Shown: one piece after another, positions 34,855 to 53,480 of the stretch
How positions within the stretch are numbered: position 1 is the stretch's first letter
Layout: each line of letters begins with the position of its first letter
Assembly: GCF_030867145.1 (NCBI RefSeq)
Contig: NC_134433.1
Span: 10,057,216-10,121,215 of the forward strand
DNA: 64,000 nucleotides
Reading direction: 5' to 3'
From: Opisthocomus hoazin
Taxonomy: Eukaryota; Chordata; Aves; Opisthocomiformes; Opisthocomidae
Notes under the pieces: generated by a model
The model's input: only the letters and a program-made list of their open reading frames with translations
Told to the model about the DNA's origin: nothing
Database searches by the model: none
Translations under genes and position numbers: made by a program

Positions 34855-37800
34855 TTAGCTCCAGACGTCCAGAGAGTACCGGCCCTTCGTCATCAGTTTC
34901 TTTACATAGTCCACGGCCTGGGGCTGGCTCATGTTCCCGAACTCGGCCACGATCTCGTAGAAGGTGTTCTGCACGTCCCGGGCCATGTTGCGAGCATCGC
35001 TGGAAAGAAGGGGACACACACGTCGAAGCCTGATCGCCTCCGGACACAGACGGTTCGCTCACCCCAGCCCGTCCGCTCGCCCTCCCCAGAACAAGGACAG
35101 CATAACCCTCCCAGGGCTTGTAACACACAAGTGGGTGAACTGAGTGACGCTCGTTTTCCTCAGAATAGGAATGTTTTCCCAAAAACTGGGAGGAGTGGTA
35201 GATACACCAGCAGGCTGTGCTGCCATTCAGCGAGACTTGGACAGGCTGAAGTGCTGGGCACAGGGGAACCTGATGAAGTTCAACAAGGGCAAGTGCAGGG
35301 TCCTGCACCTGGGGAGGAACAACCCCATGCACCAGTACAGGCTGGGGCTGACCTGCTGGAGAGCAGCTCTGTGGAGAGGGACCTGGCTGTCCTGGTGGAT
35401 GACAGGTTGACCATGAGCCAGCAGTGTGCCCTGGCTGCCAAGAAGGCCAATGGGATCCTGGGATGCATTAGGAGGAGTGTGGCCAGCAGGTCGAGGGAGG
35501 TTCTCCTTCCCCTCTGCTCTGCCCTGGTGAGACCCCATCTGGAGTACTGTGTCCAGTTCTGGGCTCCCCAGTTCAAGAAAGATGAGGAGCTACTGGAGAG
35601 AGTCCAGTGGAGGGCTACGAGGATGGTGAGGGGACTGGAGCATCTCTCCTACGAGGAGAGGCTGAGGGAGCTGGGCTTGTTCAGCCTGAAGAATTGAAGG
35701 CTGAGAGGGGACCTTAGAAATGCTGATAAATATCTGCAGGGTGGGTGTCAGGAGGACGGGGCCAGACTCTTTCCAGTGGTGCCCAGTGACAGGACAAGGG
35801 GCAACAGGCACAAACTGAAGCAGAGGAAATTCCAGCTGAACATGTGGAAGAACTTCTTCCCTCTGAGGGTGACGGAGCCCTGGCACAGGCTGCCCAGGGA
35901 GGCTGTGGAGTCTCCTTCTCTGGAGATATTCCAGACCCGCCTGGATGCAGTCCTGTGCAGCCTGCTCTGGGTGACCCTGCTTGGGCAGGGAGTTGGGCTG
36001 GGTGACCCACAGAGGTCCCTGCCAACCCCGACCATTCTGTGACTCTGTGAAGTCCCCTCCCTGCCGCTGGGCTTACCCGCACACGTAGATATGAGCGTTC
36101 CCCTCATTAACCAGCTTCCAGACGTTTTCCTTGTTCTTCTTCAGTAAATGCTGAACATAAACCTGGCAGGAAACAAGGCGGGGGTCAGGTGAGAGGGGCA
36201 GAGCCCCACGTCAGAAGGCCACAGCGAGGGAGGGGAAGCCAAGCCCCTGCTTGTGCCTCCACAAGGCAGTGGAGAAGCTGGGTGCTCCCATGACTGCCAT
36301 GGGCCTTCCCTAGGCTGCCCCAGGCTGGGAGTCTCCAGCCCTCGGGGCCTTTTCTTCTGCTGCCACGGCGGGAGCGACGCTGGGCAGCGTGAGCAAGCAG
36401 CTGGGGGATTAGAGCGGTACCTTCTCGGCCTGGTCCCTGGAGAAGGCAACGTTGAGCTGGGTGAGGACTCCCTCCCGATGGAAGCCGGCCAGCTCCTCGC
36501 GGTACAGGTAGTCCTCACGCTCGCGGCGGCAGCCGTAGTAGAGCACCGTCTCGCCCACCTCTTTGCCTGCAGAGTCACACAGCGGCCATCAGCTGGCTCC
36601 CTGCAGCCCCCCGCCCTGCCCTCCCCTCGTCCTGCCCACCCGGGGGAGGCAGAGCTGTGTTGCTGCTCCTGCTCAGAAGAGGAAGCTCGAGACTCCGATT
36701 GCTAGAAGTCTCTACATGCTTTAGCAACGAGTGACTTGACAGTGGTTACCTGGAGGTGTGGTGGCAGAGGTCAGAGAACTGGCTCAGGTCTATCCGTGCC
36801 CCCCAAATGTTCTCTGGGGCCAAGGGAGGAGGACAAAGCATCCTCATGCTGGGCAAAAACACAGCTGAAAACTGCTGTTCACCCTGCTCCACTGCCTCTG
36901 CTTTCTGCTAGGCCCGTCAGCAATGTGTGCAGCACAAGCTGCACCTTGGAGGCACCAACTGGCCCCGCTGAGCATTATCCTGCAGCAGCTCCAGGCCCCA
37001 GGGAAGTTTCTGGGCACTCACCTTGCTGCTTCATCCAGGCCCGCTCCTGAATGAAGCCGATGAAGGGGGCTATGCCAGTCCCCGGTCCGATCATGATGAC
37101 GGGCGTGCTGGGTTTGAAGGGCAGGCGAAACTGCGATTTCCTGACGTACATGGGCACCAGGGAGCTCCTCCCGTTCTCATTGGGCACCTTGTTCTTCAGC
37201 CAGTTGGTGGCCACCCCTTTGTTCAGGCGTCCCGTCTTGGTCTCGTACTCTACCATCACAGCACAGATGTGGATGGCGTTGGGGTGAACCTGCAGGGAAG
37301 GGATGTCAGCGCCAGGCAGAGAGGGAGCTCCAGACGAGGTTCTGGGCCACCCCACAGCTCAGTCCCTTGTACTCAGGGACGGGGAGAAGTTTAACTAAGT
37401 ATTAACATTGGGACAGCTATCCCTCCCCTGGCACATCAGACCTCCAAGGATGACGTCCATGAGGCTTGTGCCTGGTTGTCCAACTCACCACAGGACCACT
37501 GAGCTTCCCTTGGTATTCCTGACAACCTCAGGGCTCTGGGCACAAAGTACAGAGCGAGTTTTGATCAACCCCTGAAACGCCACCTTGCCTCCAAGCCCTG
37601 AAAGCAAAGCCTACGGGCCAAGAGGAGCAGAGCTGCAAGGAGGGCGATGGTATCAAGGCACCGCTGGCTGCGGTGTGGGACCCTCTGTGGAGGGTGGGAT
37701 AAACCCCTCTTCTCATGCACGGAGATAATGAAAGCTGCCCCCGTGACAGACAGCGTCACCAGGGCAAACTCCCCGTGTCCCGTCCCCAGCTGAGAGGAGG

Positions 37801-40800
37801 GTCAGCGGCGCTGTGGGGTCCCTCAGCAGCCTCCATCCCTGCTGGAAGCAGGCTCACCTTGGAGGAGGAGGCGATGGAGTAGTAGCGGGCTTGCAGGCGG
37901 GGCAGGAGCTCACACAAGTGGTCGATGGGGGGGCGCAGCGAGGGTATGTCCTGCAGGATGGCCAGGATGTTCCTCCGGGCCTCCACCACCCAGCTGAGGT
38001 AGAGAGCCTGCGGGCAAGGAGGGCACGCACGTGACGGCTTCCCTACGCCGCTGGCAAACGCTCCCTCAGCTCTCTGCACGTGGTGCCCAGCAGTCCTGGA
38101 TCCCTTCTGGGGATCCCCCAGCACCCGGTTTAGCCCAGTGGCTTTGCTGAGAAGGCCACAGCTCCCACCTTGCCCTCGGCGGCAGACGATGCCATTTTTC
38201 GGAGGCGCTCCTGCTCGCCGGCGTCCGTGGCGTACTGGGCCAGCTCGTAGAGGACGTTGGTGCGGGGCGGGTTGGTGATATCCAGGTAGTACGTCAGGGC
38301 TGTACGGTAGGACGTGGGGCAGGGGAAGGGATGTTTCTTATTGGATTCCTCTGAAGGAGAGAAGAGAGAGAGAAAAAAATTCAGAAATCAGCAGCTGCAT
38401 GCTGCTCCAAATCTTGTGCCAGCAGCTACACACAGCGTAGAGCTGGAGACAGCCACATGCAGCTACAGGCATGAGCGCTGCAGACAGCGCAGGGGAACAG
38501 GCTTCAGGGAGGGGAGCAGCCCTAGGGCTGAATCAGCCCTGATCCTGCGCTGAAGCAGCCCCAGCACAGGGCAGCTCCCTCTCCAGGTAGCTACGTCCCC
38601 CGGTAGCCCATTTTGTGTTTCACAGATGCTGCCTGACAGCTTATCAGAAAAAAAACAAACCAAACCAAACCAAACCCCACGCTTCCCAACGGGGCTCTCC
38701 GCCCCGAGATCCCCACGCACGGAGACACCCAGCAAACCCCCAGGCCAAGCAGGAGGGCTGCTCTCCATGGCTCGTTTGGCCTCACGCACTTACACCTCCT
38801 TCAGTTCTGGCCCCAAAAGCATCCTTAGCCTCCGCCAGCCATGGGCAGAGCCCCCTCGGGAAAGGTCAGCACCAGCAGCCGAGGCTGGAGACATTTCATT
38901 CAGCAAAGCAGGGACAGGACTGGCAGCGTGAGGAGGAGAGCCCGGGACACCGCACAGGCATCTGCCGGCTCCAGCAGTGCCACCTGCACTCTCGAAACCA
39001 GGAGCCAGCTCTTGGCCTTCTGGGCCAGCACCCCTGACGCTCCAGGTCAGGCTGCTTTAGGAGTAAGACGGGCAGCAGCTGCCATCTCCCTCCTGCCAGA
39101 GACCAGCTCTGCTGGGAACGCTGCCCAGGAAAAGCTCTTTGTGTCAGCACAAGTGCTCCCTCCCGGCAGTTCAGTCCCCAAGCCTGTGCCTCCTCCAAGG
39201 ACTGAATAACAGCATCTCAGACACGAAGCCCCCGTTGAGCTCCGGGGCTGCTGCGGCAGAGGGATGCTCCGGCGGGCCGACGCTCTGTAATTAGGAGCGT
39301 GCCGTTACATAATTTGCTGTCGAATGGGCACAGCAAACACGTTTCACAACCGACCCACTTCAGCCGGCTCGCAGCAAGTGGGCTCTGTGCCACCGCTGCT
39401 GAAATGGCACCGCATCCAGAGAGGCCACGGGATTCCTCTGCTTGCCTGGAGGTGCCCTGCGGGACCTGAAGGCGATCGGCGCCTGCCCTGGTGGGAAGGA
39501 CAGAGGCCATAGCTGCAAGAGAACTGCTGCTGCTCAGGGGGGATCCATACTCACCATCCAAATTGTTTAGGGACATGATCGTGTCCAGATCCGTGCCCAG
39601 GATCTCACCAATCTGATTCACCAGAGAGGAGTCGTTGGCTGGGTACACCGCCACGTGGTCCCCAGACTCGTACCTGGCACAAGAGCGGGAGGAGAGCAGA
39701 TGAAACACCACCACCACTTCCCGTCCACCCCGAGCCCGAGCTGCTCAGTTCGGAGACAAGCGGGCTGGTGCAAGGGGCAGCAGGACACCGCTGAGATCTG
39801 AGCTGCTACACAGCACCTGCACAACCAGGGACCCCCCAGAGCCGGCGGTCATAGCAGAAAGGACCATCGCGGAGTAATGGTTTTAAGAACCAGCTCTTTG
39901 ACAAGGGACCTCCCAGACAACAGCAGTTTTGCCAGAGACTTCAATGAGGCCAGACTTCCACAGGACAAGCCAGCTCCCCGACAGGCAAGGAGCAAAGCTG
40001 CTCGAAACCTCGGCAGTATTTTGTTACGTTAAGCCACCTGGATTCATGGCATTCTTACAAGCACACACAGAGGATTTTAAGCCAGCAAGAGGGTTTTTGA
40101 GAACAGGGCTTTATTCCCCCTATGCTTGTACACCTGAGCCAAGCAAACCCACACGTAAGCCATCCCCAGCTCTCCCCCCCTCTCATAGCTCATCTACCCC
40201 TCATTTTCTTAACAACTCCTAGAGAATTCTTGCAGCTGGGACTGCTCAGGTAGGACAGGTATGCACAGCCAGCTCCGGAGGGACACAAAGCCAGCTGGCA
40301 CAGCCAGGCACAGCGCAAGAGCTGGGAGAAAGTCCTGCTGTGGGGTACCTGACACGTGGTACAGAAACCCAGAGGGGCGGTGTTAATTAATTATGAGAAC
40401 AAGGTCCCCTTCTGCAGTGCTGGACGAGGCCAGTGCCACATCCTCGTTCTCTGCTCCTGCCAAAATAGAGGAGCAGTCTCCCATGGGAAACTACCTGATT
40501 TTGGAATCGGAGATATCCAGCTCCAGGTGCATAAGGTGTCGCTCTCCACCCTCGTTCAGCTTGCGGTTCTCCGTAACCTGGGCCAGGAAGGGGTTCTTGG
40601 CATCAAACGGTCTGGAAGGAAAGACGAGGACCCTCTGGGTTACCCTCCTGAGGCTCACAGCGCTGCCTGCATCCAGGCACGTTCCCTCTGCCTCCAGAGC
40701 AGGCTCCCATGACCTGAGCACAGGGCTGTCCTGGTTCACGTTTCAAAGCCCACTGCAGCACAAACCAAATTATGATCCTGCTGCTACCCACACTGGCACG

Positions 40801-43800
40801 GAAAACGTCATTTTCCTTCTACGCACAGCCCAGCAGCCAGCAGCTCCCGTCCCATTAAGAACACGTGATACAGAAGTGGCTTGGAGGGACTGTCCCAACT
40901 GAAAGAAATATTTCAGGCTGGAATTCATTTAACAGCTAACATCCCCACAGCAACACTGCAAGGAACCATCACACATTAGCTACCCTGGGCAAGGAAAGGC
41001 TCCAAGTGACCTCAGAACAGATGCTGCAAATGTACCACCAAAACAGCACACGTGAACACAGCCTTCTGCTCAGTTAATGAATTGGTGGTGGTGAGAAATC
41101 TCAGAGTCCCAGTGCAGATCTGAGCCCATTTCTCTTGGGCAGAGACCTGCCAGATGGCTGCACTGCAGAAAGGACACCCCCTGCAATGCAGGTGTTAGAA
41201 GCATCAAGGATCCGTCAGTCGAACCCTGGCCCACGTACACCCCGCCCAGGGTGGTTTGGTACTTACGGCTTCTGGTTCTCGTAGCTCTTGAGACGGCCCA
41301 TCTCACCGGTGTAGATTTTGTTCATGTTCACATCTGTGTGCACCACCAGCTCATACTGGCGGATACTGGAGGAGAAAAGAGAAAAAAGTCAAACTGGAAA
41401 TCACAAGGTACAGCTGGAACCATCATCTGCTTTGCTGAATTTCATAGATTCATAGAATGCTTTGGGTTGGAAGGGACCTTTAGAGGCCATCTAGCCCAGC
41501 CCCCTGCAGTGAGCAGGGATGTCTTCAACTGGATCAGGTTGATCAGAGCTCCATCCAACCTGGCCTTGAACGTTCCCAGGGATGGGGCCTCCACTGCATC
41601 TCTGGGCAATCTGTTCCAGAGTTTCACCACCCTCATGGTAAAAAATTTCTTCCTTATATCTAGTCTAAATCTACCCCCCTTAGTTTAAAGCCATCACTCC
41701 TCATCCAATCGCAACAAGCCCTGCTGAAAATATTTTCCCCGTCTTTCCTATAGGCCCCTTCAGGTACCGAAAGGCTGCTCTAAGGTCTCCCCACAGCTTT
41801 CTCATCTCCAGGCTGAGCAACCCCAATTCTCTCAGCCCTTCCTCATAGAAGAGGTGCTCCAGCCCTCGGATCATCTTTGTGGCCCTCCTCTGGCCCCACT
41901 CCAACAGCTCTGGAGTTTTGCTGCAGTTCCAAACCAATTGCAGCTTCCATCCCTTCGTCCCTCTCGAGACACGAGGGATCAGGCAGAGCATGCAGAAAGC
42001 CCAAACCAGGAGGAAACATCAGCTTCACTGGGAACATCGCAACCCAGCAAGGCCATCCACAGAGGAACCAAACCTATCACATCACCCATCCAGAACCAAA
42101 ATCCAGACCTGGGTTCAAACTCGCACCAGGACAGGCTCAGTCCAAACAGCCCCACTCGCTGTTCTACTCCACAGGTGCAGTCTCAGGTCTGGAAGGGGAG
42201 GCAGCGCACAGGGAAGGGGACAGCAGCTCAGGGCTGACGGCATGGCCACCAGAGGTGGCCAATCTCTCTGGCACCCGAAAGAACCTGCTCCCACACCCAC
42301 CTGGACTCTTCTCCCGTAGCCTCCACCCCAAAGTGCTCACACACCGCTGGCCAGAACTGCTCTCTCCAGGTGATGAAGTCTTCTTCCAGGCTAGCCAGGG
42401 CAAAAGAAAGATTCAATAACCCAGCCCCAAGTGGGAGCAAAGCGGCATTCCCAAAGGAGCCGTCTGAGATCCCTACGGACTTCCTCCCTTCACTGTAAGA
42501 AAAAGCATTCACCCTTGGACCAAGGCAGTGTTGGTACCTCCACGTGCCCACAGGTCACCAGGAGAGCATCTTCAGAGCACTAAGCAGGTGTGAGGGAACA
42601 TGCTACACCAGCCACCCCTCCCTTCACCACATCTGTCAAGGCAGGCTCTGTTATTCAGGCTCCGTCTTCAACCAACTCAGCTCCCCCCTGCCTACTCCTG
42701 GAATCAGGTCACCTGCCTAAAAGGCAGATTCCACCATGGCAATGCTTATTTTTCTGGGCCCAGGGCCTCCCACACACAGCAATGTCCCTCTCATCAGATC
42801 TTGCAGCCCTTAGAGGTAAAACCATGGGCTGATGTAATTTCCCAGATGAAGCTGCTACCCACAGGGTGCTCAGGTGAGCATAGAGAGATTGAAAAAAAAA
42901 AAAAAAAATACTGTTGTCCAAGTTGGAAGATTGCTGTACAGTTCACAAGGAGACTGAGTTTGCCTCCTCCACAGGGATGGGCGAGTTTATCCACACAGGC
43001 TGGGTCAGCAGTGGAGCTGCAGCAGGGCAAAGGCAGAGGAGGCTGCAAAGCCTCCTCGAGTATATAACTATGGTCATTTAAAGCTGATGCGGGACCTCCC
43101 AGACAAAGGATCCCCTAGGATACTCTAAGTGTACAGGGATCCGATTGTGGGAGAGAGAGCAGACAGACACACTTAGAGGCATGTCAGCTCCCACAACTAG
43201 CCCTATGGAGTTTATTTCTGTCTTAGTAGCAGAGCCAGGTCCCTGCCAAGGTCCCTTCCATGATGCCTTAGCCAGCTCAGACCAGCCCTTCAAGCCAAGC
43301 TACTCACTTGCCATCGTCATCTCCCAGCCCAAGTTCAAAGATGCGCTGGGCTCCAAGTTCCTCCAGTCTCTTGTCCACATACTTTCCCATGGCATTGAAG
43401 TGCTCGTAAGTCTTGTTGCCCAGCCCAAAGACCTGGAAGGGAACGCTGATGAGTGTGGAGAGGCAGGGGCTGGACTTTTCCCATTCCACTGGCATCCTCT
43501 GGGCAGTATCACCCAGCAAAGGATGCTGAAGCAAGACAGCAAGACCTCTCCCAGCTACCCATCAACTATTTGTGGGCCTTGAATAAGAACCTACCGCTGG
43601 TGCTTGTCTGGTCAGTAGGCACCACCTCCTCCCCTCAGCCAGGCCTCCAGCACGTCAAGAGAACACGCGTACAAGAGCTGCCTGCGCCATCTCCTCCAGG
43701 GACCAGTAAGAGCCCAGGCTGCCTGGAGACCAACTGCTGCCCCTCGCCTCCCACAAACCGCTCAGCAAATGTTTGCTCACTGCTTTACACAGAGCAGCTG

Positions 43801-46800
43801 AACATCTCTGGCAGTGGACTTTCTCCTCATACACAATTATTATGCTGCCTAAGGAATTTGGCTGGGCTTTAGGTGAGGCAGCTGTATCTCAGCCAGTTAT
43901 TCAGCTCGGCACAGGAAGAGAGCTACACGCTCCTCCAAGTGATTTAATTTGCGGGAGAAGATCTGGCCCAGGGCTGCTCAATTAGCTTCTGAACAGCAGC
44001 AGCCGCCTGAATACATTTACAGACCTCATATTCAATGCCTGCTGGGCTGTCTGCGGCAAGATATTACCAGTGAACCCTTGTGATTTAGGGAGTGGGGAAA
44101 GCGCTCTGACATCTGCATTTAAAGCCTGCAGATACATGTTTGTAAGTGTCCAGGAAGCCTGGAGAGGAAGACAATAGTGACCAGATCCAACACAGGCATA
44201 CAAGGCAAAGACATCATGTTGTGCCTTTACCAAAGCCACGTGCAGGCACAGGGGAGGGCTTTTGGCTTCCCTGCCCAAACGCAGCACAAACCAGAAGCGA
44301 GCCACTCACCGCAAATCGGAGACCTGACAGGTCAGCGTCAGCCTCCTGCAGCCAGTCGTAGAAGTCTTGGGCGTTGTCCGTCGGATCACCCTCGCCGTAA
44401 GTGGCCATGCAGAACACAGCTAAGGACTTGTCGATCTCAGAGAGGCGACTCAGGTCCGACTACAACCAAAGGAAAGAACAAACCCTGAAGGATCCCACAA
44501 TGCGGTTACTGGGCAAGCTTATTCCTACAACGCAGCTGCCTCTGGTGTGTGGAACAGCACCACGTAACGTCAAACAGCTGATTACAAAAGGGGTTGGGAA
44601 AGGCCAAACCTATCCAAAATGGCAGGGGAAATAAGGCTAACCACCCTCACTGGACTGCAAGCCAATACTTCCAGCCCACCAGAAAAGCAATGGGATTTTT
44701 CATACAAGGCTTTAAGGGACCAGGATCATTGTGGACTCTGGAGAACACCAGTGTCAGTGCCTCTGCGCAAGACTGCAGCAGTACAGGACCAATGCTGACT
44801 ACAGAAGGAATATGGAGCAAGTTTCATGCTGCCAACAGATCACTTGTGGCTCTCAAATACTCCAGGCTACCTTCCTCTTTAGTGTTGCAATATTCACCCC
44901 AAATCCATACACTAGCAAGGATCAAGCCCATCTCTGCATCTCTCCGGCTGATCCAATTTCCTTTCTTCTCCCTAAGTGGCACTACTAAAAGGACAGCTGT
45001 CCCTTGGCTAGGTCCTTCCTGGGTTTTTAGGGGACACTAAAAGGATGTTACCTATCCTGAGGCTGTTTGTGGCTAAATTACCAAGTCATACTCCTCTGGA
45101 TCCGCTGCCATGCCCCGGAGGCCATAGCGATGAGCATCTTTGGAAAGGCGGTTGGCAAACTCCTCTGCTGTACCCGTCTGGGAACCGTAGAAAACCACTA
45201 TGTTTCGCCCCTGGAGAGAAAAAGGAATCTCGGTTAAATGGTGATTACTCATTTGGCAAACGCACAGAGGAAGCACGTCTTGCCAAAGACAAAGGAATCG
45301 CCTGGGATCAGGAGCCCTGGACTGCAACCTGCAGGCAGCCAGGAGCCTGCACCTGTACGGGACTCCGACGGGTTTGCGGCAGGAAACTCAAGGCTAAGCT
45401 GTGAATAAGAACATGACTCTTGTCAGTCTCAGAGAGGTGACTCAGGTCTGACTAAAACCCAAAGCAAAGAATGAACACTCAAGATTTATTCTCAGCCTCA
45501 GGGCTGCAGGGTGACTCCTGGAAACAGGGGAATCCCTGGATGAGAACGGAGATCGGCCTAAGCTTTGGGAAAGTGCCCAAGCACTGGAGTTCCTGCTCTG
45601 TCGCAAGCCAGCTACTCAGCTACTTTGAAGTAAAACGGAAAACATATCCAGCCCTTGCTTCTTCCTCTGCTTCCTCTTGCATCCAGTCCAGCAGAATCAA
45701 AAGCTGCCAGTTCTGTGTACAATTCCCATTCCAGAGCGAGCCAGTTTGGGAACCAACCACGCAGATAACTGCCAGCCAAGAACTTTAAAGTCTTTGCTAT
45801 TTCCCTCTTGACTTTGATCTTGTATTACACTTTTTTTTTGCACCAAATGTTCACTTTCATTGTTTCCTCTAAGAACAACTCTCAGGCACAGACAGAAAGA
45901 GCTATTCCTGCCTGCCCAGACAGCCTTCCTCTGGATGCTCTTTGCAGCAGACGTGTCCGTATCCAAACCAGTCCCCCCTGCTGACAGCTAGACAGTCTCC
46001 AGAGGAAACTGGGCAGGACACGAGCTCCTCCACCTTCCCAGCACCCCGCATAGCCAGCGCAAGAAGCTTACCGTCTTCTTCATCTTCTCAATGAAGCTGC
46101 TGTCTCTCACCGGAGCTGCTCTGCAAGACAGGAGGAACCTCCTTTCAGATGAGCATGTTCATTCTTTAAAGTCAGGAATAAGCAAGTGGGGAAAAAGCAG
46201 CCCCCAGACCTCAGGAAGGCTGCCCAAAAGGGTGAGAGTCCCCACTGCCCGCTCCTGTTTGCCCTGTCCCAGGGATGCCCAGCGCTCAGCTGCAGGGCTT
46301 CTTTGCACCCAACCATGGAGCAGGAACTCACAGCAGAGGGGAGAAGCTGACCCCACGCCCCACCGCCACCAGTAAATCCTCCCACAGGCAGAGCCCCAGC
46401 ACTCAGCCCCGGCTGCCAGGAAACCTTTACTCTATCAGCTGCTCTGAGAGGTTTCACAGCTGAGCAGGTTACAAGGATCTCTCAGAGCTACAACGCAAGA
46501 GGAGGTCTCCAGACAGATCTCAGGGGCCAAGCTGCAGTGGGGGAGAAGGGAACGGAGAGCTCTGGGCCTCCCGGCACCACAGCAGACAGGCAAGGGATCG
46601 GTCCCCAGCCATGCCCCCCAGGGCAGATTCCCCAAGCTTGAAGTCAGACAGGCCTAAAAACCAGCTGTTCCAACCTCAAAACAGCATGCCAGCCACGAGT
46701 CCCAGAGCTGGAGAGCCCGGCGGAGCAGACAGACGCAGCTGGTCAGAGCCGCAGAGCCTCCGGCAAGGCAGCCGCTGCCTGCAGAGGTCCCGCAGGGCTT

Positions 46801-49800
46801 GTTCCCACGCCGGGGTTTCTGGCCCCGCGCGGATCTCCGGCACAGAGAGCATCTGCGTTACTGCATGGAGGAGGCTTTCGCTAGCTCGAAGAGGGACAAA
46901 CCACAGCAACGTCAGAAACCTTGAGGCAGAGATTCATGCTGCTGTGGCTACCCCCTATTAGGTAGGGAGCCAGAAGAGCTTTGCTACCCTAAACACACCC
47001 ATGGGTTTTCAGTGTCACAGGGTGAAAGCACCCCAGCCCTGGGGACCCTGGGAGCCCCACAAGCAGTGGTGACTCTGGCTACAGTCAGATTAGGCGCTGG
47101 GGTCTTTTCAAGGCAGGAGGGCAAGCGCCAGGAGCTCACTTGCCGTCTGCCCCGCTGGAGCTTCAGTAGCAGGGAGAAGGAACGTGGGACCCATTCCCAT
47201 TTCTTTTTCACAATGGAAGAATGCAAGGCTGGGTCTCCTGCGGGAAGAGAGAAGCCTCCAGGCGAAAAAAAAAAAAAATGCTTTTGGCTCCGGCCCATGT
47301 GAGAATATGCAGAGCTCACTAAGAGTTTCCTAAACTCTGCAGCCCAGAGGGAGGGATTTCTGCGATGCGCCGAGGCATTTGCCGAGCACACACACAGAGC
47401 GCGGCAGGGTGGGGGACATTCAGTAAAGCACGCCTTCAAGCACCACTTTCTACCCAAAGGTAACAAGGAACTCCGTAACCGGGCCCGATAGCTCCGAGCA
47501 CCAACACAGTCTCATACAGCATGCACGGAAGATGAGCAAACCCTACCCAAAAAAGCTACCCAAGGCAGCTGTGCTCCCAGCAGAGAGCGGCTCTGCACCC
47601 CCCGCTTTGCTCTCTCAGCAGCGAGCCATCTCCCCACGTTGTCATTGGCCTCCTGCTGGGAACAGGGACATTGCAAGCACCTTATGAGAGCAGATCCAAC
47701 CCTGCCCATGCTCCCGTCGGGACGGGGGCTTGGGAGAGCTGCCCCCCAGCCCGCTCACAAAACTCAGCTCTCACTTCGCTTTTGGCTCCTTGGTGAACCT
47801 CTTTGGTTTACTGCCCTCTGCGAATGAGATCCAATTAAAACAGCTGTTGGGTCAACTGCTGAAGAAAACGCTTTTAAAGCAGGAAAAAAAAAAAGTTTTA
47901 GATCCTTTCAGCAAGCTCTTTGGAAGACCAGAGGGTGCAGCACAGGGAGCATGTCCATTTTCAAAGGAGGCAACCCTGCACTGAAGCGCTGTGGTGGAGA
48001 AGAGTCCGTGGCTCAGACACAGAAGAAATAATGAGCCTGGCTTTTGAAAAAAGGCTACACAACTCCCCAAAATCGCTTCATCAGGGTGGCTTGAAAATCT
48101 GAGCTGCAAAAATGCACAGATGCCAAAGACAGAGACGACACTCATTTCCACTGCTCAGCCAGGAAAACTTAGAAGAGAAAGCGTGTTTTCAGCCATGACT
48201 GCTCCTACAGCTTAGATGCTCAGGGTAGCGACTAAGAGAGTTAGAAGAAGCGACGGGTGGAGGAAAGGGGATTAACTCCATTGTCGGAGCAATCCTTTGG
48301 CTTGCACAGAATGCCCACCCTTGGTGAGAGCCCACAGCGCAAGCGACTCCCAGGGCTCTGCCACTTTGATTTCAGCAGAAAGAAAGGAGGGGGGAGGAAG
48401 TTCCCGACAGCTCAGCAACAACATCACCGTCTCCGCTGAACACCTCTCCTTCAGAAAGCTCCCATGCCCGTGGCTTTCCTCGCGAAAGCACGCGTACGCC
48501 CAGCAGTGAGAACGTCGCAGAGAAACCAAGCGCCGACAGCAGGGTCTCCTCCGGAGCAGCTTGCCTCCGAGCGCAGCCTCTCCCCCTCCTTCTCCCCTGG
48601 GAGCAGGGAGAGGCACCCCAGCCCACCCGGCTTCAGGGCGGCAGAAGCGACCTTCGGAGCCGCAGCGGTTGACTCACCTCGCCGGGGCCACCTCGTCTCG
48701 CGGGGCCGAGTACGCGCAGCCCATGGTGGGCAGGGGAGAGGCAGACAAAGAGTCGCAGGGCAGCCGTGTCTGTCTGCGAGGGGAGGTGTGGGGGACGGAT
48801 CTAACTTAGCTCTGGAGCAACGCGCACACAGGCCTTTCCATTCTGCTCCTCCTGGGCGTTAAAGCCAAGCGTCAGCCTTTTGTTAAGGAGAAGAGAGCCG
48901 GCACAAAAGGTCCCGGCACGGGTCATAGCAGGAGTGGTCCTGTCTGCTCCGATCCTCGCGGCGGGGCTTTGGAAGTTACCGGGTGGATCCGCACAGTCCT
49001 GAGAAACTGCAACATCTGGCAGCAGCGGCAGAAAGGAATTAGGAGTGGAGAATGAAACCTCCCAGGATCCTCCGCACCACACGTCCCTCTCCCATCCTGG
49101 AGCGGGGGACGGGACACAGAACCCTCCCCTAGCCTTGTTACCTTGGAAACTGTTTATATCACAGCTGCTTTTACATATATTCTTTTTAAAAAAAAAAAAA
49201 TTGAAGCTGTAGCTGAATGAAATGATTCCAGACACTGCGTGAGCAACACTACGGGTAACTATGGCAGTGCCATTACAGAGGCAGCTCAAAGGAGTTTGTT
49301 CTCTTCAGGATCCTTTTAAATTAAATTAGAGATGGTCTCTCTTTCTCTAACACACATGCAGGCAGCAAAGAGCGCTAATCAGGCTGAGAAGTTGGAGCAA
49401 TTCCTGCCACAGGAAGCCCTACAAGCACCAGGGAATGCATTTCTCTATAGCTGCAGAATAGAGATAAGCCAGTTTCTGCCCCAAACAATTTAAAGACGGG
49501 GGAGAAGGGAGGGGGTGACACCCAGCGTACCAATCGATGTCTCGCCTGCGTCTCCCCAGGGCAGTCTGTACAATTCTGCGGCGTGGACATGCGAAAGGAA
49601 AGAAATCTGCGACTGAGAAACATGCAGAGGAGGCGCAGCTGAAGAATAAAACAAATGAGTGCATTCCGCAGCAATGCCCCTACGAGGAAGCATGGTGGCC
49701 ATGGCTGCGTGGCGATCGAAAGTCGTTCTCCCTAATGACATCTGCAGAGCAGGCCGTGGGGAAGGCTGCTCTGGTGGTTTCAATTAAATCTGAAAATGGC

Positions 49801-52800
49801 CAAAATGCAAGCAATCCTCAGCCGGCGGTATCCCGGCCTGCCCCACGCGTGCGCGCGTTACACAACAGATGTACAGGACGTCTTGTCTGCAGCAAAGCCT
49901 CAGCATACGCTGGACCCTGCCCTTCTCTGGAGGCTTCGGCCAGGAGAACAGCTCCGCTTGGCCGCAAGGGCGAGGGATCAGCAAGCACCCAAGCAGTAGC
50001 TGAACCCAGAGATCCATCGTCAGGGCAAGATCATGACTGTTCTCAGGCCATGCGGAGTAAACCCAGCCCAGGTGACATCCAGAACGGGGTATTCTGACCG
50101 CGCATCTGTTCTTCCACAATAAGGAGCAGCTGCAGCAGTGACATTTCCTTTGGAGACCCCCCTGAGCTGACGTGGCTCGATCGATGCGTGCTGCTCAGCG
50201 GCGGCTCCCAAAATCCCCAGGAGGGCACCAAGGTGCCGGACCCCGTGTTCAGGTCAGAGACTCTTCTGGCACTCTCCCACGTTGCAAGCAAAGCCGTTAA
50301 AGCAGCAGCCATCATGATGTGCCTGAAGTGCTGATCAGCACTGTGTCCTCCAGTGTTCTGAAGCTGAATTAGGAGCCAAAGGGACAGAAATGGTAGCCCA
50401 GTATCACCAGATAAAGTAGTTCAGGACAGTCTGGTGAGTTGAGGCAGAGCTGCAGAAAACATGCTGAAGAAAAGCAACACCTCTGAAGGTCAAGGCTCTC
50501 CACTTCAGCTGGAGACAGCCCCGCCAAGGGCACTGTCCCTTCACAGCTTTCTTGCCTGCAGACAGGCCAGCCCCTGCCTGCCCACACACCAGTTCGCTCT
50601 CTAGCCAGGCATGGGCAGCGGCTGACAGTACGACCCTGCATCTCGCCGATTTGCTTCTTCACCTGAAAGGAAACTCCACCCCAGACTCCAGGACGACGCG
50701 AGGGAAGGAAATCCAAGGCTTGTTTTCCCCACTCATTTCCCTCCCGGCTCCAAGTGTCCCATACAATAACAGTGCAAAAGCTGCAGGAAGCTGCTGCCTG
50801 TGCCGGAGGACAGACATGCCACCAGCCACAGCCTTGGCTCACAGGTCTGCACTGCCCTTGGCCCAGCCTGCTGCAAGGAGCCCAGCAGAGCTGCAGCAGG
50901 CACTGGCAAGGTCAGGCTTAACGCACAGGGAAAAACTACTTCAACACCTCCTCTTGCTCCTCACCTGCCTGGCTGTCACTTTTCCAAAATGCAATTGTAT
51001 CAGGCAAGGTCTGGAGCAACCTCGCCTCTCCCCCTGGTTATCGGTGATGGGACTGCTGCTCTTGCGCAGCTCTCGCACGGAGCAGTTGCACAGTGCTCCC
51101 TGCCAGCCCTCTCCCACGCAGATGGAGAAGACAGCACAGACCCCACAGGGGAAACGTAGGCAAAATGCCCGTCAGTCAGCTGAAAGCCAAAAGCCCCAGC
51201 CAGCCTCGGATGGAAGCCCACGTGCTGAGATCCTGCCACAGGACACGGTGGTAACGCACACCCGGGGTGGTCGGCAAGCCCCTCGGCAGCGTGACTTCTC
51301 TGCAAGGTCACGACAGGCTCTGGAGGAGCTGCACGTGGTGGGTGGAAACAGTCACAAGAACGGTGAGCACGGGAGCTCTCGGCGGCAATCGGCACCACGT
51401 GGGGATCTAATTCCAGACTGATGGGGCCATTTCTCCAGCCAGCTCAGCTCTCATCACAACGCAGCCGTTCTCCTTACAATCTCCAGAGGCAACTGCACGC
51501 ACTGATACTCAGCCCTCTCTTGCAGGCACAAGAGGGAAAGTATGTAACCGATCCAACAGAACAAATTCCCCAGGCAAGGCCAAGCAGGCACAGATAGTCA
51601 GGCTGCCACCAGCCTCGCACATCTGTACAAGGTGCCCCAGCCAGGGACGTTTCTTCCTTTTACACCTCCCCAGACAGAAAGTGCACTTTCCACCCTCCTG
51701 CAACACCAGGGCACGCAGCCTGCCGGAGGGCTGGCTCCGAGCTGCATGCTGCTCTGCCCATTACTCGCAACAGACCTGGCATCCCAGGCTTGCCTTCAAG
51801 CAGAGGGCTCTGCCACCAGCGGGTCGTGATCTGAGCAAATGGGAAACAGTGAGACCAAACCTGCTCCTTTTAAATTATGACCGGATTACAACACAAACAC
51901 TGGATGACGAGCCCTGAAAACTGAAAGCAGCATAACCCTCTAAGGCAGACATACAGGTCTCAGAAAATGGACCCACAACCGCTCGCTGTGTTTGATGTAG
52001 CTTTTCCAGCATAGGGTAACAGGAGCATCAATCCTCTGCTGAAATGCCTTGGCTTATCCCCAAACCTCCTCATCCGAGCAGCCTATGGACAGGTCCTGCC
52101 ACAGCTTCTTTGCCCATCAGGCCATATCACTTCAAAATGAAGGACCGAGAAGTATTTCTTGTCAGAGCAACACTCGCTAAGTGCCACGGGGAAAAACCCA
52201 CTTCAGGCAGGAGGCCTCGCTGGTGCAACTGTGCGTGTTAAATCTTGAACCTACTGCAAGCAGCCAGCCATCGCCTTCCCCTCCGCGTGGCATGGCCTCA
52301 CAACCAACCGCTCCGAGCAGGGGAGGCTACAGTGATCTGCAGCCGGCATTACAAACCCAGAGGATTCACCTTTGGTGTGTGGTTACCTTCTGCAAAGGCC
52401 TAATACTGGAAAGCGCAGAGCCGGGCGAAGGCTGAGGCTGGCTTTCTCTCTGGGGCAAACTACACCCACGCAGGGAACAGATACCGGGAGACTGAAGGTA
52501 AAGGTATTGCACAACGCCAGCTCCTACTGTCTCTGCGGCAGTGGGTTTCAAACCTCTTTACTGCTCTTAGCAATGCTCCAGGAGGAAACAGAATGAATGA
52601 CCTAAAAAGCCCGGCAGAACACTGGTGTTAAGCTTGGTATGCAACTGATACAAGGAGCTGAATGCACCCAGATCTCCACCAACGCGGCTGGCTCCTGGCC
52701 CTAAGCCCTCTGCAGAGGACGAGGTGGAACAAGGACCTCTCCCTCTCCAAATCCAGTCTCCTGCTGCTCCTGTAACCTGGCATCAAAGCCAAGAAAGTTT

Positions 52801-53480
52801 CACAAGAGCTGCCAAGCAGCTCATGCCCAGGAACTATCTCCCAGCTCCCCATGACTATTTCTTCTTTACATAGCTAAAAGTAGATAAGATTTCTGACAGC
52901 AAACCTGCTTAAGAGCAAGCCCACCTTTCTGCAGATTTCTCTAAATATGACTTTTATCAGAAAAAACAGAGAATAGCCAAAGCAATCCTTGTTTTGAAGT
53001 ACAGCCAGGGGCTTTTCTGCCTTGCCTTTTCTTGGCTGGCTTGGGCAAGGCAAATTACTGATGTGGGCCACACGGTGGGGTAAGGCAGAGCTGCAGCCTG
53101 GCTCTTCCACAGAGATTTCTCCATTGCGAGGTGAACAGCTCAAAAGAAACGCGAGGGGAGAGAAATGTGATTTGGGACTAAGTCCCCTCACCTAGGGACC
53201 TCCCAGAATCCAGCTGAGCTTCCCACACAGCCCCCAAGGACCCACCATAAGCAAGACGGAAAGCCACACTCACCCCACGCTGCCTGAGATTTGTTACTTA
53301 CACTGATTGCATTTTGGGGATGTCTGGGACTTCCTCCTTTTTCTTGCGGAAGAAGAACCAGTAAGTGAAAAGCCCGATGATGAGTGATATGAGAAACACA
53401 TCCGTCATGCTGAAGAGAGAGTCTTGCTGTCCAGTGTTGTCGGGAGGGGAGATGTTTGGTTCCATGCCAGCATCCCCCAT
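34855..53480 (-). CDS. POR: NADPH-cytochrome P450 reductase, 15 coding exons, complete
   Basis: POR passes electrons from NADPH through FAD and FMN to microsomal P450s, heme oxygenase, squalene monooxygenase and cytochrome b5 on the cytosolic ER face. Coding exons: 53480-53302, 46120-46072, 45210-45082, 44459-44310, 43432-43308, 42390-42301, 41365-41267, 40611-40495, 39673-39555, 38350-38169, 38007-37858, 37289-37022, 36566-36421, 36162-36077, 34999-34855. Phase closes to 677 residues. Seen: N-terminal anchor [17 protein letters not shown] (28-44) followed by RKKK; flavodoxin/FMN loop [11 protein letters not shown] (84-94); [19 protein letters not shown] site [10 protein letters not shown] (454-463); NADPH site [18 protein letters not shown] (531-548); YYGCRR (562-567); catalytic Cys629 in YVCGDARNMA; C-terminal SLDVWS with the FAD-stacking Trp676. 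Exon 2 starts with an acceptor 14 nt before the ATG, so at least one non-coding 5' exon lies further upstream, probably outside the window or within 53495-64000. A second possible first exon is at 48678-48724. Confidence 0.97.
35172..36051 (+). mobile_element. CR1 LINE fragment (about 880 bp) in POR intron 15
   Basis: It reads on the plus strand, antisense to POR: reverse-transcriptase C-terminal coding remnants ([13 protein letters not shown], then [15 protein letters not shown], then [20 protein letters not shown]) end in the CR1 3' tail (CCATTCTGTGACTCTGTGA). Frame changes near 35300 and 35697 show it is decayed. It fills most of the 1,077-bp intron and ends about 25 bp before POR exon 15. 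Confidence 0.95.
37022..37289 (-). CDS. POR: POR coding exon 13: FAD/NADPH-binding core
   Basis: The largest coding exon, residues 464-552 plus one base: [68 protein letters not shown]. The GVATNWL and GPGTGIAPF segments bind FAD pyrophosphate and NADPH respectively in this reductase family. One residue shorter than human in the NENGRSS loop. Confidence 0.96.
38648..38677. repeat. Short (AAACC)n tandem repeat in POR intron 10
   Basis: An A-run passes into about four AAACC units. A simple microsatellite with no sign of function. Confidence 0.8.
41442..41930 (-). mobile_element. CR1 LINE fragment, older subfamily, in POR intron 7
   Basis: The plus strand begins TCATAGATTCATAGAATGCT, then GGGTTGGAAGGGACCTTTAG, the reverse complement of a CR1 3' end. 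It therefore reads on the minus strand, the same direction as POR. It differs clearly from the other three copies, so it belongs to another subfamily. It starts about 76 bp before the exon 8 acceptor. Confidence 0.92.
42891..42909. repeat. Poly-A run, POR intron 6
   Basis: Eighteen consecutive A after GATTG on the plus strand. Homopolymer; no flanking target-site duplication was recognised, so it is not assigned to a retroposed gene. Confidence 0.8.
45082..45210 (-). CDS. POR: POR coding exon 4: FMN phosphate-binding loop
   Basis: It encodes residues 77-119: [18 protein letters not shown], then [15 protein letters not shown] and [10 protein letters not shown]. The SQTGTAEE loop holds the FMN phosphate, as in flavodoxins. 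Acceptor CTCCAG; donor TTG/GTAATT. Confidence 0.96.
47263..47278. repeat. Poly-A run, POR intron 2
   Basis: Fourteen A in a row after GGCG on the plus strand. Simple repeat. Confidence 0.75.
48678..48724 (-). CDS. POR: Candidate alternative POR first exon encoding an anchor-less N-terminus
   Basis: Within POR intron 2, on the POR strand, an ATG in the context CCCACCATGG opens 15 codons ([15 protein letters not shown]) plus two bases AG, ending at a consensus donor AG/GTGAGT. The usual exon before exon 3 also ends with two bases, so splicing to exon 3 (46120-46072) would be in frame: AG plus A gives Arg, then AAPVRDSSF. The surrounding 48470-48730 stretch is CpG-rich, as expected of a promoter. 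The product would be 633 residues: 16 new ones replacing residues 1-60, without the membrane anchor, with all flavin and NADPH domains kept. Gly2-Cys3 and Ser6 fit N-myristoylation plus palmitoylation. I infer this from sequence alone; a chance open frame next to a cryptic donor is possible. Confidence 0.5.
48725..53301 (-). other. POR: POR intron 2, upstream part
   Basis: Apart from the candidate first exon at its lower end, I see no exon with family resemblance. The plus-strand open frame of 289 codons at 50552-51421 has no recognisable domain and lies antisense to POR. If 48678-48724 is a real first exon, its core promoter lies in about 48725-48900; no TATA box is visible there. Confidence 0.5.
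53302..53480 (-). CDS. POR: POR coding exon with start codon and ER membrane anchor
   Basis: It encodes residues 1-59 plus two bases of codon 60: an acidic/Pro-rich luminal tail ([17 protein letters not shown]), a single membrane segment (about 27-44), then RKKKEEVP, the stop-transfer and linker. The acceptor is TTTACAG, with the exon beginning at 53494. The donor GT follows TCAGT; the exon 3 base A completes a Val codon. Confidence 0.96.

What the first reader, a model, noticed from the sequence alone, without database searches (positions are those of the whole stretch)
48678..48724. Candidate alternative first exon of POR giving an anchor-less reductase
Seen: inside POR intron 2, on the POR strand, an optimal Kozak start (CCCACCATGG) opens 15 codons that run directly into a consensus donor AG/GTGAGT, leaving two bases. 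The next exon (46120-46072) needs exactly two. The junction makes Arg followed by AAPVRDSSF. The local DNA is CpG-rich. Known: protease-cleaved POR lacking about its first 55-60 residues stays soluble and reduces cytochrome c but no longer supports P450s. Inferred: this exon would replace precisely that anchor and linker and leave the flavin domains whole, giving a 633-residue isoform from an internal promoter.
Basis: partly seen in the sequence, partly recalled or inferred. Interest (0 to 1): 0.82.

Follow-up and report, generated by a model that had tools for sequence, protein, structure and literature searches.

The report
Lipid-anchored second form of POR
A tiny extra exon in the gene for P450 reductase, the enzyme that feeds electrons to drug- and steroid-processing enzymes, is shared from shark to birds and cattle and probably replaces the enzyme's usual ER anchor with a fatty-acid anchor, so it should work on a different membrane.

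Summary
Window 48724-48678 (-) encodes [15 protein letters not shown]+AG before a GTGAGT donor, in phase with POR exon 3. A Markov null expects 0.0013 such exons per intron.

The exon is conserved. Of 147 distinct proteins returned by three searches, 23 (20 named organisms) carry MGCx[YF][SA] joined to POR exon 3: catshark, bichirs, sturgeon, gar, bowfin, teleosts, birds, dog, red deer, cattle. In the 13 fish pairs that share a contig length, the isoforms differ only before exon 3. A profile of three mammalian exon peptides picks this place alone in the window (E 1.1e-7; next 0.25).

The exon most likely swaps the ER helix for a myristoyl/palmitoyl anchor. A src-myristoylated engineered POR is active and redirected to the plasma membrane (PMC7660101).

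Open: no RNA, lipid or localisation data; promoter versus splicing unresolved; no primate or rodent copy among the hits; no POR splice variants in dog liver (PMC10833530). Seven paper searches listed no description of it.

The parts
48678..48724 (-). Alternative first coding exon of [18 protein letters not shown] plus two bases (AG); N-terminal MGCxxS dual-acylation motif
   Evidence: homologous exon peptides in 20 organisms; profile hits E 1.3e-6 and 1.1e-7 to 1.1e-4
48672..48677 (-). 5' splice donor GTGAGT, phase 2
   Evidence: 9-mer GAGGTGAGT beside the donors of 14 other POR exons
48774..48796 (-). Candidate 3' splice acceptor GTCCCCCACACCTCCCCTCGCAG just upstream of the ATG; would make 48773-48678 a 96-base in-frame exon
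   Evidence: 13 of 15 pyrimidines, among the top 3 of 71 YAG candidates of the intron under that simple count
48101..49200 (.). CpG-rich stretch around the exon, possible internal promoter
   Evidence: o/e up to 0.76; a TATAAA at 49158, no GC box, CCAAT, CRE, NRF1 or ETS consensus found in 49200-48670
53302..53480 (-). Canonical POR first coding exon (lumenal tail, transmembrane anchor, linker), phase 2 donor
46072..46120 (-). POR exon 3 shared by both forms ([16 protein letters not shown])
34855..46120 (-). POR exons 3-16, complete reading frame of the FMN, FAD and NADPH domains

Best explanation
The feature is an alternative N-terminal coding exon of POR, conserved in jawed vertebrates, that swaps one membrane anchor for another. 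Used instead of exon 2 it makes a 633-residue reductase whose transmembrane ER anchor is replaced by Met-Gly-Cys-Ala-Tyr-Ser... After Met removal, Gly2 would be myristoylated during translation and Cys3 palmitoylated at the Golgi, sending the intact diflavin reductase to Golgi/plasma-membrane cytosolic faces, where it would feed NADPH electrons to non-P450 acceptors or take part in redox control, in the manner of eNOS and membrane CYB5R3. Shown: exon, frame, donor, uniqueness in the genome, conservation, motif. Inferred: transcription in hoatzin, lipidation, location, client.
For: Exon and phase; chance expectation 0.0013 per intron. Of 147 distinct proteins from three searches, 23 carry MGC..[STA] within the first 200 residues and 21 of these begin with it; 20 named organisms from catshark to cattle. 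Columns over 24 sequences (23 + window): M, G, C 24/24; position 5 Y/F 24/24; position 6 S 22, A 2; position 8 P 21; PS00008-type pattern (recalled) 24/24. Exon-only profiles: 16 non-bird peptides E 1.3e-6, next 1.5, in 2,986 six-frame pieces; 11 peptides not found with the hoatzin query 6.2e-7, 8 fish/shark 1.1e-4, 3 mammal 1.1e-7, each with this place first and next best 0.25-0.48. In 14 forms compared, the first 11 residues of this exon are more alike (mean 0.62) than the canonical anchor exon (0.51). MGC forms fall on more than one branch of the teleost POR duplicates, and tarpon has two on two contigs. POR with a v-src myristoylation signal in place of its anchor was functional and redirected to the plasma membrane (PMC7660101, passages). 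Met-Gly-Cys is described as the dual-acylation consensus of G-alpha and Src proteins (PMC9409123 and PMC11678294, passages).
Against: No RNA, mass-spectrometry or imaging evidence was available. Dog liver RNA-seq (five greyhounds, five beagles) reported no POR splice variants (PMC10833530, passage). No primate or rodent MGC form was among the 41 proteins listed for a human-tailed query, and no turtle, squamate, amphibian or platypus one in any of the three lists. Only 3 birds showed it; 2 of these models (crow, godwit) have it inside a longer protein and the third (Callipepla) has a damaged tail. Both sturgeon forms have Ala at position 6. Retrieval used similarity, so conservation is somewhat overstated. 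Elephant-seal models show that unrelated alternative first exons also get annotated (P0120, P0125, P0134).
Confidence: 0.8

Rival explanations
1. Soluble, anchor-less POR: the exon merely removes the transmembrane helix, and the enzyme works in the cytosol on soluble acceptors.
For: No hydrophobic stretch in the exon; deleting the anchor gives a functional cytosolic POR in cells (PMC7660101, passages).
Against: If only solubility mattered, Met-Gly-Cys, an aromatic at 5 and Ser/Ala at 6 need not be kept in 24 of 24 sequences.
Confidence: 0.1
2. Internal cassette or leader exon: the exon is included between exon 2 and exon 3 (96 or 123 bases, in frame in hoatzin), so that Met-Gly-Cys is not N-terminal and a long linker is inserted into anchored POR.
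For: Acceptor at 48774 with 13/15 pyrimidines; both candidate acceptors give an open in-frame insertion. Crow and godwit gene models contain the MGC stretch internally.
Against: 21 of 23 annotated relatives begin at this Met. The crow model reads exon 2 in a non-canonical frame and the godwit reading upstream of the ATG lies in another frame than hoatzin's. Optimal Kozak context at the ATG.
Confidence: 0.07
3. Chance ORF plus annotation noise.
For: No transcript seen here; unrelated alternative first exons are annotated in elephant seal.
Against: Chance 0.0013; independent exon-only profiles find it; same phase and Arg junction from catshark to cattle.
Confidence: 0.03

Closest known systems
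Canonical POR (NADPH-cytochrome P450 reductase)
   Same: Same gene and the same exons 3-16
   Different: N-terminal transmembrane ER anchor (exon 2) instead of MGCxxS
CYB5R3 (cytochrome b5 reductase 3)
   Same: Flavoprotein reductase whose N-terminus differs between forms; [quoted passage not shown] soluble form in erythrocytes (PMC9706631, passages)
   Different: Unrelated N-terminal sequence; there the choice is lipid anchor versus soluble, here transmembrane helix versus a predicted lipid anchor; no Cys3 (recalled)
Endothelial nitric oxide synthase
   Same: POR-like diflavin reductase domain (NOS chains match POR); N-terminal myristate plus palmitate; Golgi and plasma membrane (PMC11678294, passages)
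   Different: eNOS palmitoylation sites are Cys15/Cys26, not Met-Gly-Cys, and the lipids are on its standard form
Src-family kinases and G-alpha subunits (Met-Gly-Cys dual acylation)
   Same: Met-Gly-Cys N-terminus (PMC9409123, passages)
   Different: Not oxidoreductases; no relation outside the motif
Engineered v-src-POR fusion
   Same: Myristoylation signal in place of the ER anchor of POR; functional, redirected to the plasma membrane (PMC7660101, passages)
   Different: Laboratory construct, not encoded by the gene

Membership tests
POR (diflavin reductase) | FMN, FAD and NADPH domains intact in the product | tested here: met
   Open frame through exons 3-16; relatives with the same N-terminus carry PF00258, PF00667, PF00175; solved POR chains align from residue 16-17 of P0003 onward, i.e. 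after its exon
POR (diflavin reductase) | N-terminal transmembrane ER anchor | tested here: not met
   Exon replaces exon 2; [16 protein letters not shown] has no hydrophobic helix
Dually acylated Met-Gly-Cys proteins | Met1-Gly2-Cys3 with small residue or Ser at 6 and no Pro at 7 | tested here: met
   24 of 24 sequences fit a PS00008-type pattern (pattern recalled)
Dually acylated Met-Gly-Cys proteins | Myristate on Gly2 and palmitate on Cys3 | not testable with these tools
   Needs labelling or mass spectrometry
Alternative first coding exon | Start codon, open frame, donor in the phase of the next exon | tested here: met
Alternative first coding exon | Conserved in relatives at the same junction | tested here: met
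Alternative first coding exon | Own transcription start inside intron 2 | tested here: inconclusive
   CpG-rich stretch but few promoter motifs and a good upstream acceptor
Alternative first coding exon | Spliced RNA | not testable with these tools
   Only database models ('isoform X2' and the like) were seen, no reads

The most novel reading that the evidence does not exclude
Jawed vertebrates keep a second, lipid-anchored POR, made by swapping one 47-base exon (in hoatzin), that moves the cell's general NADPH electron donor from the ER to the Golgi or plasma membrane to serve non-P450 partners (for example heme oxygenase, quinones or lipid-peroxidation control), a compartment of POR biology that papers have not described as far as seven searches here show.
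Probability: 0.5. Interest if true: 0.92.

Novelty: new variant of a known kind. Interest (0 to 1): 0.78.

Why it matters
POR is held to be the ER-bound donor for microsomal P450s, and its anchor is taken as a fixed part. A conserved alternative exon that trades the transmembrane helix for a predicted fatty-acid anchor would mean that a second POR pool on other membranes has been kept since the split of sharks and bony vertebrates. It would offer a source for POR activity outside the ER, and it gives a short, unique exon by which RNA, knock-out and imaging tests can be aimed at that pool alone. Studies that delete or sequence POR without this exon may miss it.

Tried and rejected
Chance explanation: rejected by the intron null, the window-wide scan and exon-only profiles. 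I worried that the profile was circular, since some of its members were found with the hoatzin query; profiles limited to members found by other queries gave the same single place.

Promoter motifs: little found. Structure prediction of the quail relative P0003 gave mean pLDDT 57 and pTM 0.44. Residues 1-24 were under 50, but so were many others, and P0003 is a faulty gene model (residues missing near 163-170 and extra ones near 528-554), so I do not use it.

Papers: looked for alternative or acylated POR forms; one search returned nothing and the other listings showed none. Searches were for motif background, FSP1 background and gene-prediction background. All ten are search listings over open-licence papers only; most subscription journals are not held. 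Passages only were read of PMC7660101, PMC10833530, PMC4240602, PMC11678294, PMC9409123 and PMC9706631.

Comparisons that did not inform: dog and cattle pairs (490/635 and 189/574 in an ungapped count; the models differ by insertions), and Paramisgurnus against the other loach (602/606, two species).

Full report
What is there. The window holds a complete POR gene on the minus strand: first coding exon 53480-53302, exon 3 at 46120-46072, and exons 4-16 down to 34855. All introns after exon 3 have AG...GT ends and the frame is open to a final DVWS. The first 88 residues of the canonical product shown for the hoatzin entry P0011 are the same as in the window; over the whole protein that low-quality entry matches at 93% with 8 mismatches and 2 gaps. 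The window is therefore probably Opisthocomus hoazin (inferred). In intron 2 (7,181 bases), 48724-48678 reads ATGGGCTGCGCG...GCGAG and is followed by GTGAGT. Joined to exon 3 it gives [25 protein letters not shown] and a 633-residue protein.

Is it chance? With RNNATGG it gives 0.009, with any ATG 0.05, and with any ATG plus the loosest donor 0.72. It is the only RCCATGG-to-AG|GTRAGT candidate in the window on either strand, and the 76-base stretch has one match in the 1.48-Gb assembly.

Relatives. Three searches of the protein database, each scoring only residues 1-40 of the query, returned 50, 58 and 41 proteins, 147 distinct. Of these, 23 contain MGC..[STA] in their first 200 residues: 9 first seen, 11 and 3. 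They come from 20 named organisms: Corvus, Limosa, Callipepla; Erpetoichthys, Polypterus; Megalops (two contigs), Clupea, Engraulis, Denticeps, Amia, Lepisosteus, Acipenser (two contigs), Aplochiton, Anguilla, Paramisgurnus, Misgurnus; the shark Scyliorhinus; dog, red deer and a cattle hybrid record (names as given). Twenty-one begin at this Met; in the crow and godwit models it is internal. Many fish entries are named isoform X2; from recall, NCBI's predictor adds such variants only with transcript support, but I saw no reads.

Same gene, one swap. Only the first 15-17 residues differ, ending in Arg. A tree of 25 tails places MGC forms on more than one teleost branch (Anguilla/Megalops B, Clupea/Paramisgurnus, Engraulis/Denticeps/Aplochiton), although several forks are weak or open. 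The exon thus probably predates the teleost duplication, and its presence in Scyliorhinus suggests the jawed-vertebrate ancestor.

Independent recovery in the window. A profile of the exon peptide alone, from 16 non-bird sequences (4 of the 20 non-bird records dropped as identical in the exon), finds the hoatzin exon at E 1.3e-6 with the next best at 1.5 among 2,986 six-frame pieces. Because part of that set was found with the hoatzin query, I repeated it with subsets: 11 sequences found only by the other two queries (6.2e-7, next 0.48), 8 fish/shark (1.1e-4, next 0.39), 3 mammals (1.1e-7, next 0.25).

What the exon does. Over 24 sequences positions 1-3 are M, G, C in all, position 5 is Y or F in all, position 6 is S in 22 and A in 2 (both sturgeon), position 8 is P in 21 (H in deer and cattle, R in shark), and 24 of 24 fit a PS00008-type myristoylation pattern, which I recalled. 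Met-Gly-Cys is described as the dual-acylation consensus of G-alpha and Src proteins, with Gly2 myristoylation needed before Cys3 palmitoylation in G-alpha-o (PMC9409123, passages). The first 11 residues of the exon are on average more alike (0.62) than the canonical anchor exon (0.51) across 14 forms, with the caution that the forms were found by similarity. I conclude that the exon is an acylation signal and not mere removal of an anchor. POR with its anchor replaced by a v-src myristoylation signal was functional and redirected to the inner plasma membrane in human cells, and cytosolic POR without anchor was also functional (PMC7660101, passages). The natural exon would therefore be enzymatically tolerable either way.

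How the mRNA starts. The exon sits in a CpG-rich stretch, but 49200-48670 shows only a TATAAA at 49158 and no other searched motif. An acceptor with 13 of 15 pyrimidines ends at 48774; using it makes a 96-base in-frame exon. The crow model joins exon-2 sequence, in a frame that is not the canonical one, to the stretch before the ATG. Promoter and splicing are therefore both open; the protein made from the Met-Gly-Cys start is the same.

Against. Dog liver RNA-seq from five greyhounds and five beagles reported no POR splice variants (PMC10833530, passage), so if dogs use the exon it is elsewhere or rare. No primate or rodent form appeared among the 41 proteins of the human-tailed query; the database is clustered at 90%, so this does not show loss. 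Turtle, squamate and platypus entries in the lists have other N-termini. Elephant-seal models carry unrelated first exons, a reminder that single models prove little. Lipidation, place and partners are inferred.

Verdict. The feature is real and conserved; the reading 'alternative first coding exon' is supported and 'anchor-less' probably wrong. It is a new variant of a known enzyme: annotated without comment as isoform X2 in databases, and not described in the listings of seven searches of open-licence papers.

Noticed in passing
P0044, P0047, P0050 (start), P0049 (inside): Some squamate canonical POR proteins begin MGTASSK before the transmembrane anchor, a myristoylation-like start on the ordinary form; a further snake entry (P0043) has METASSK, without the Gly.
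   Followed up: no
window 48773-48678 and 48800-48678: With either candidate acceptor the exon would also be an in-frame insertion (96 or 123 bases) between exons 2 and 3.
   Followed up: partly
window 49501-50300: Second CpG-rich patch in POR intron 2 (o/e up to 0.74), unexplained.
   Followed up: no
P0120, P0125, P0134 (Mirounga leonina): Elephant-seal POR models with three different, non-MGC N-termini joined to exon 3.
   Followed up: no
P0020, P0123, P0131, P0135, P0136: Gene models that fuse a rhomboid domain (PF01694) upstream of POR in bird and mammals; the N-terminal part of P0020 has no convincing match in this window.
   Followed up: partly
P0053, P0054 (Acipenser ruthenus): The sturgeon exon has Ala instead of Ser at position 6, on both of its two contigs.
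   Followed up: no
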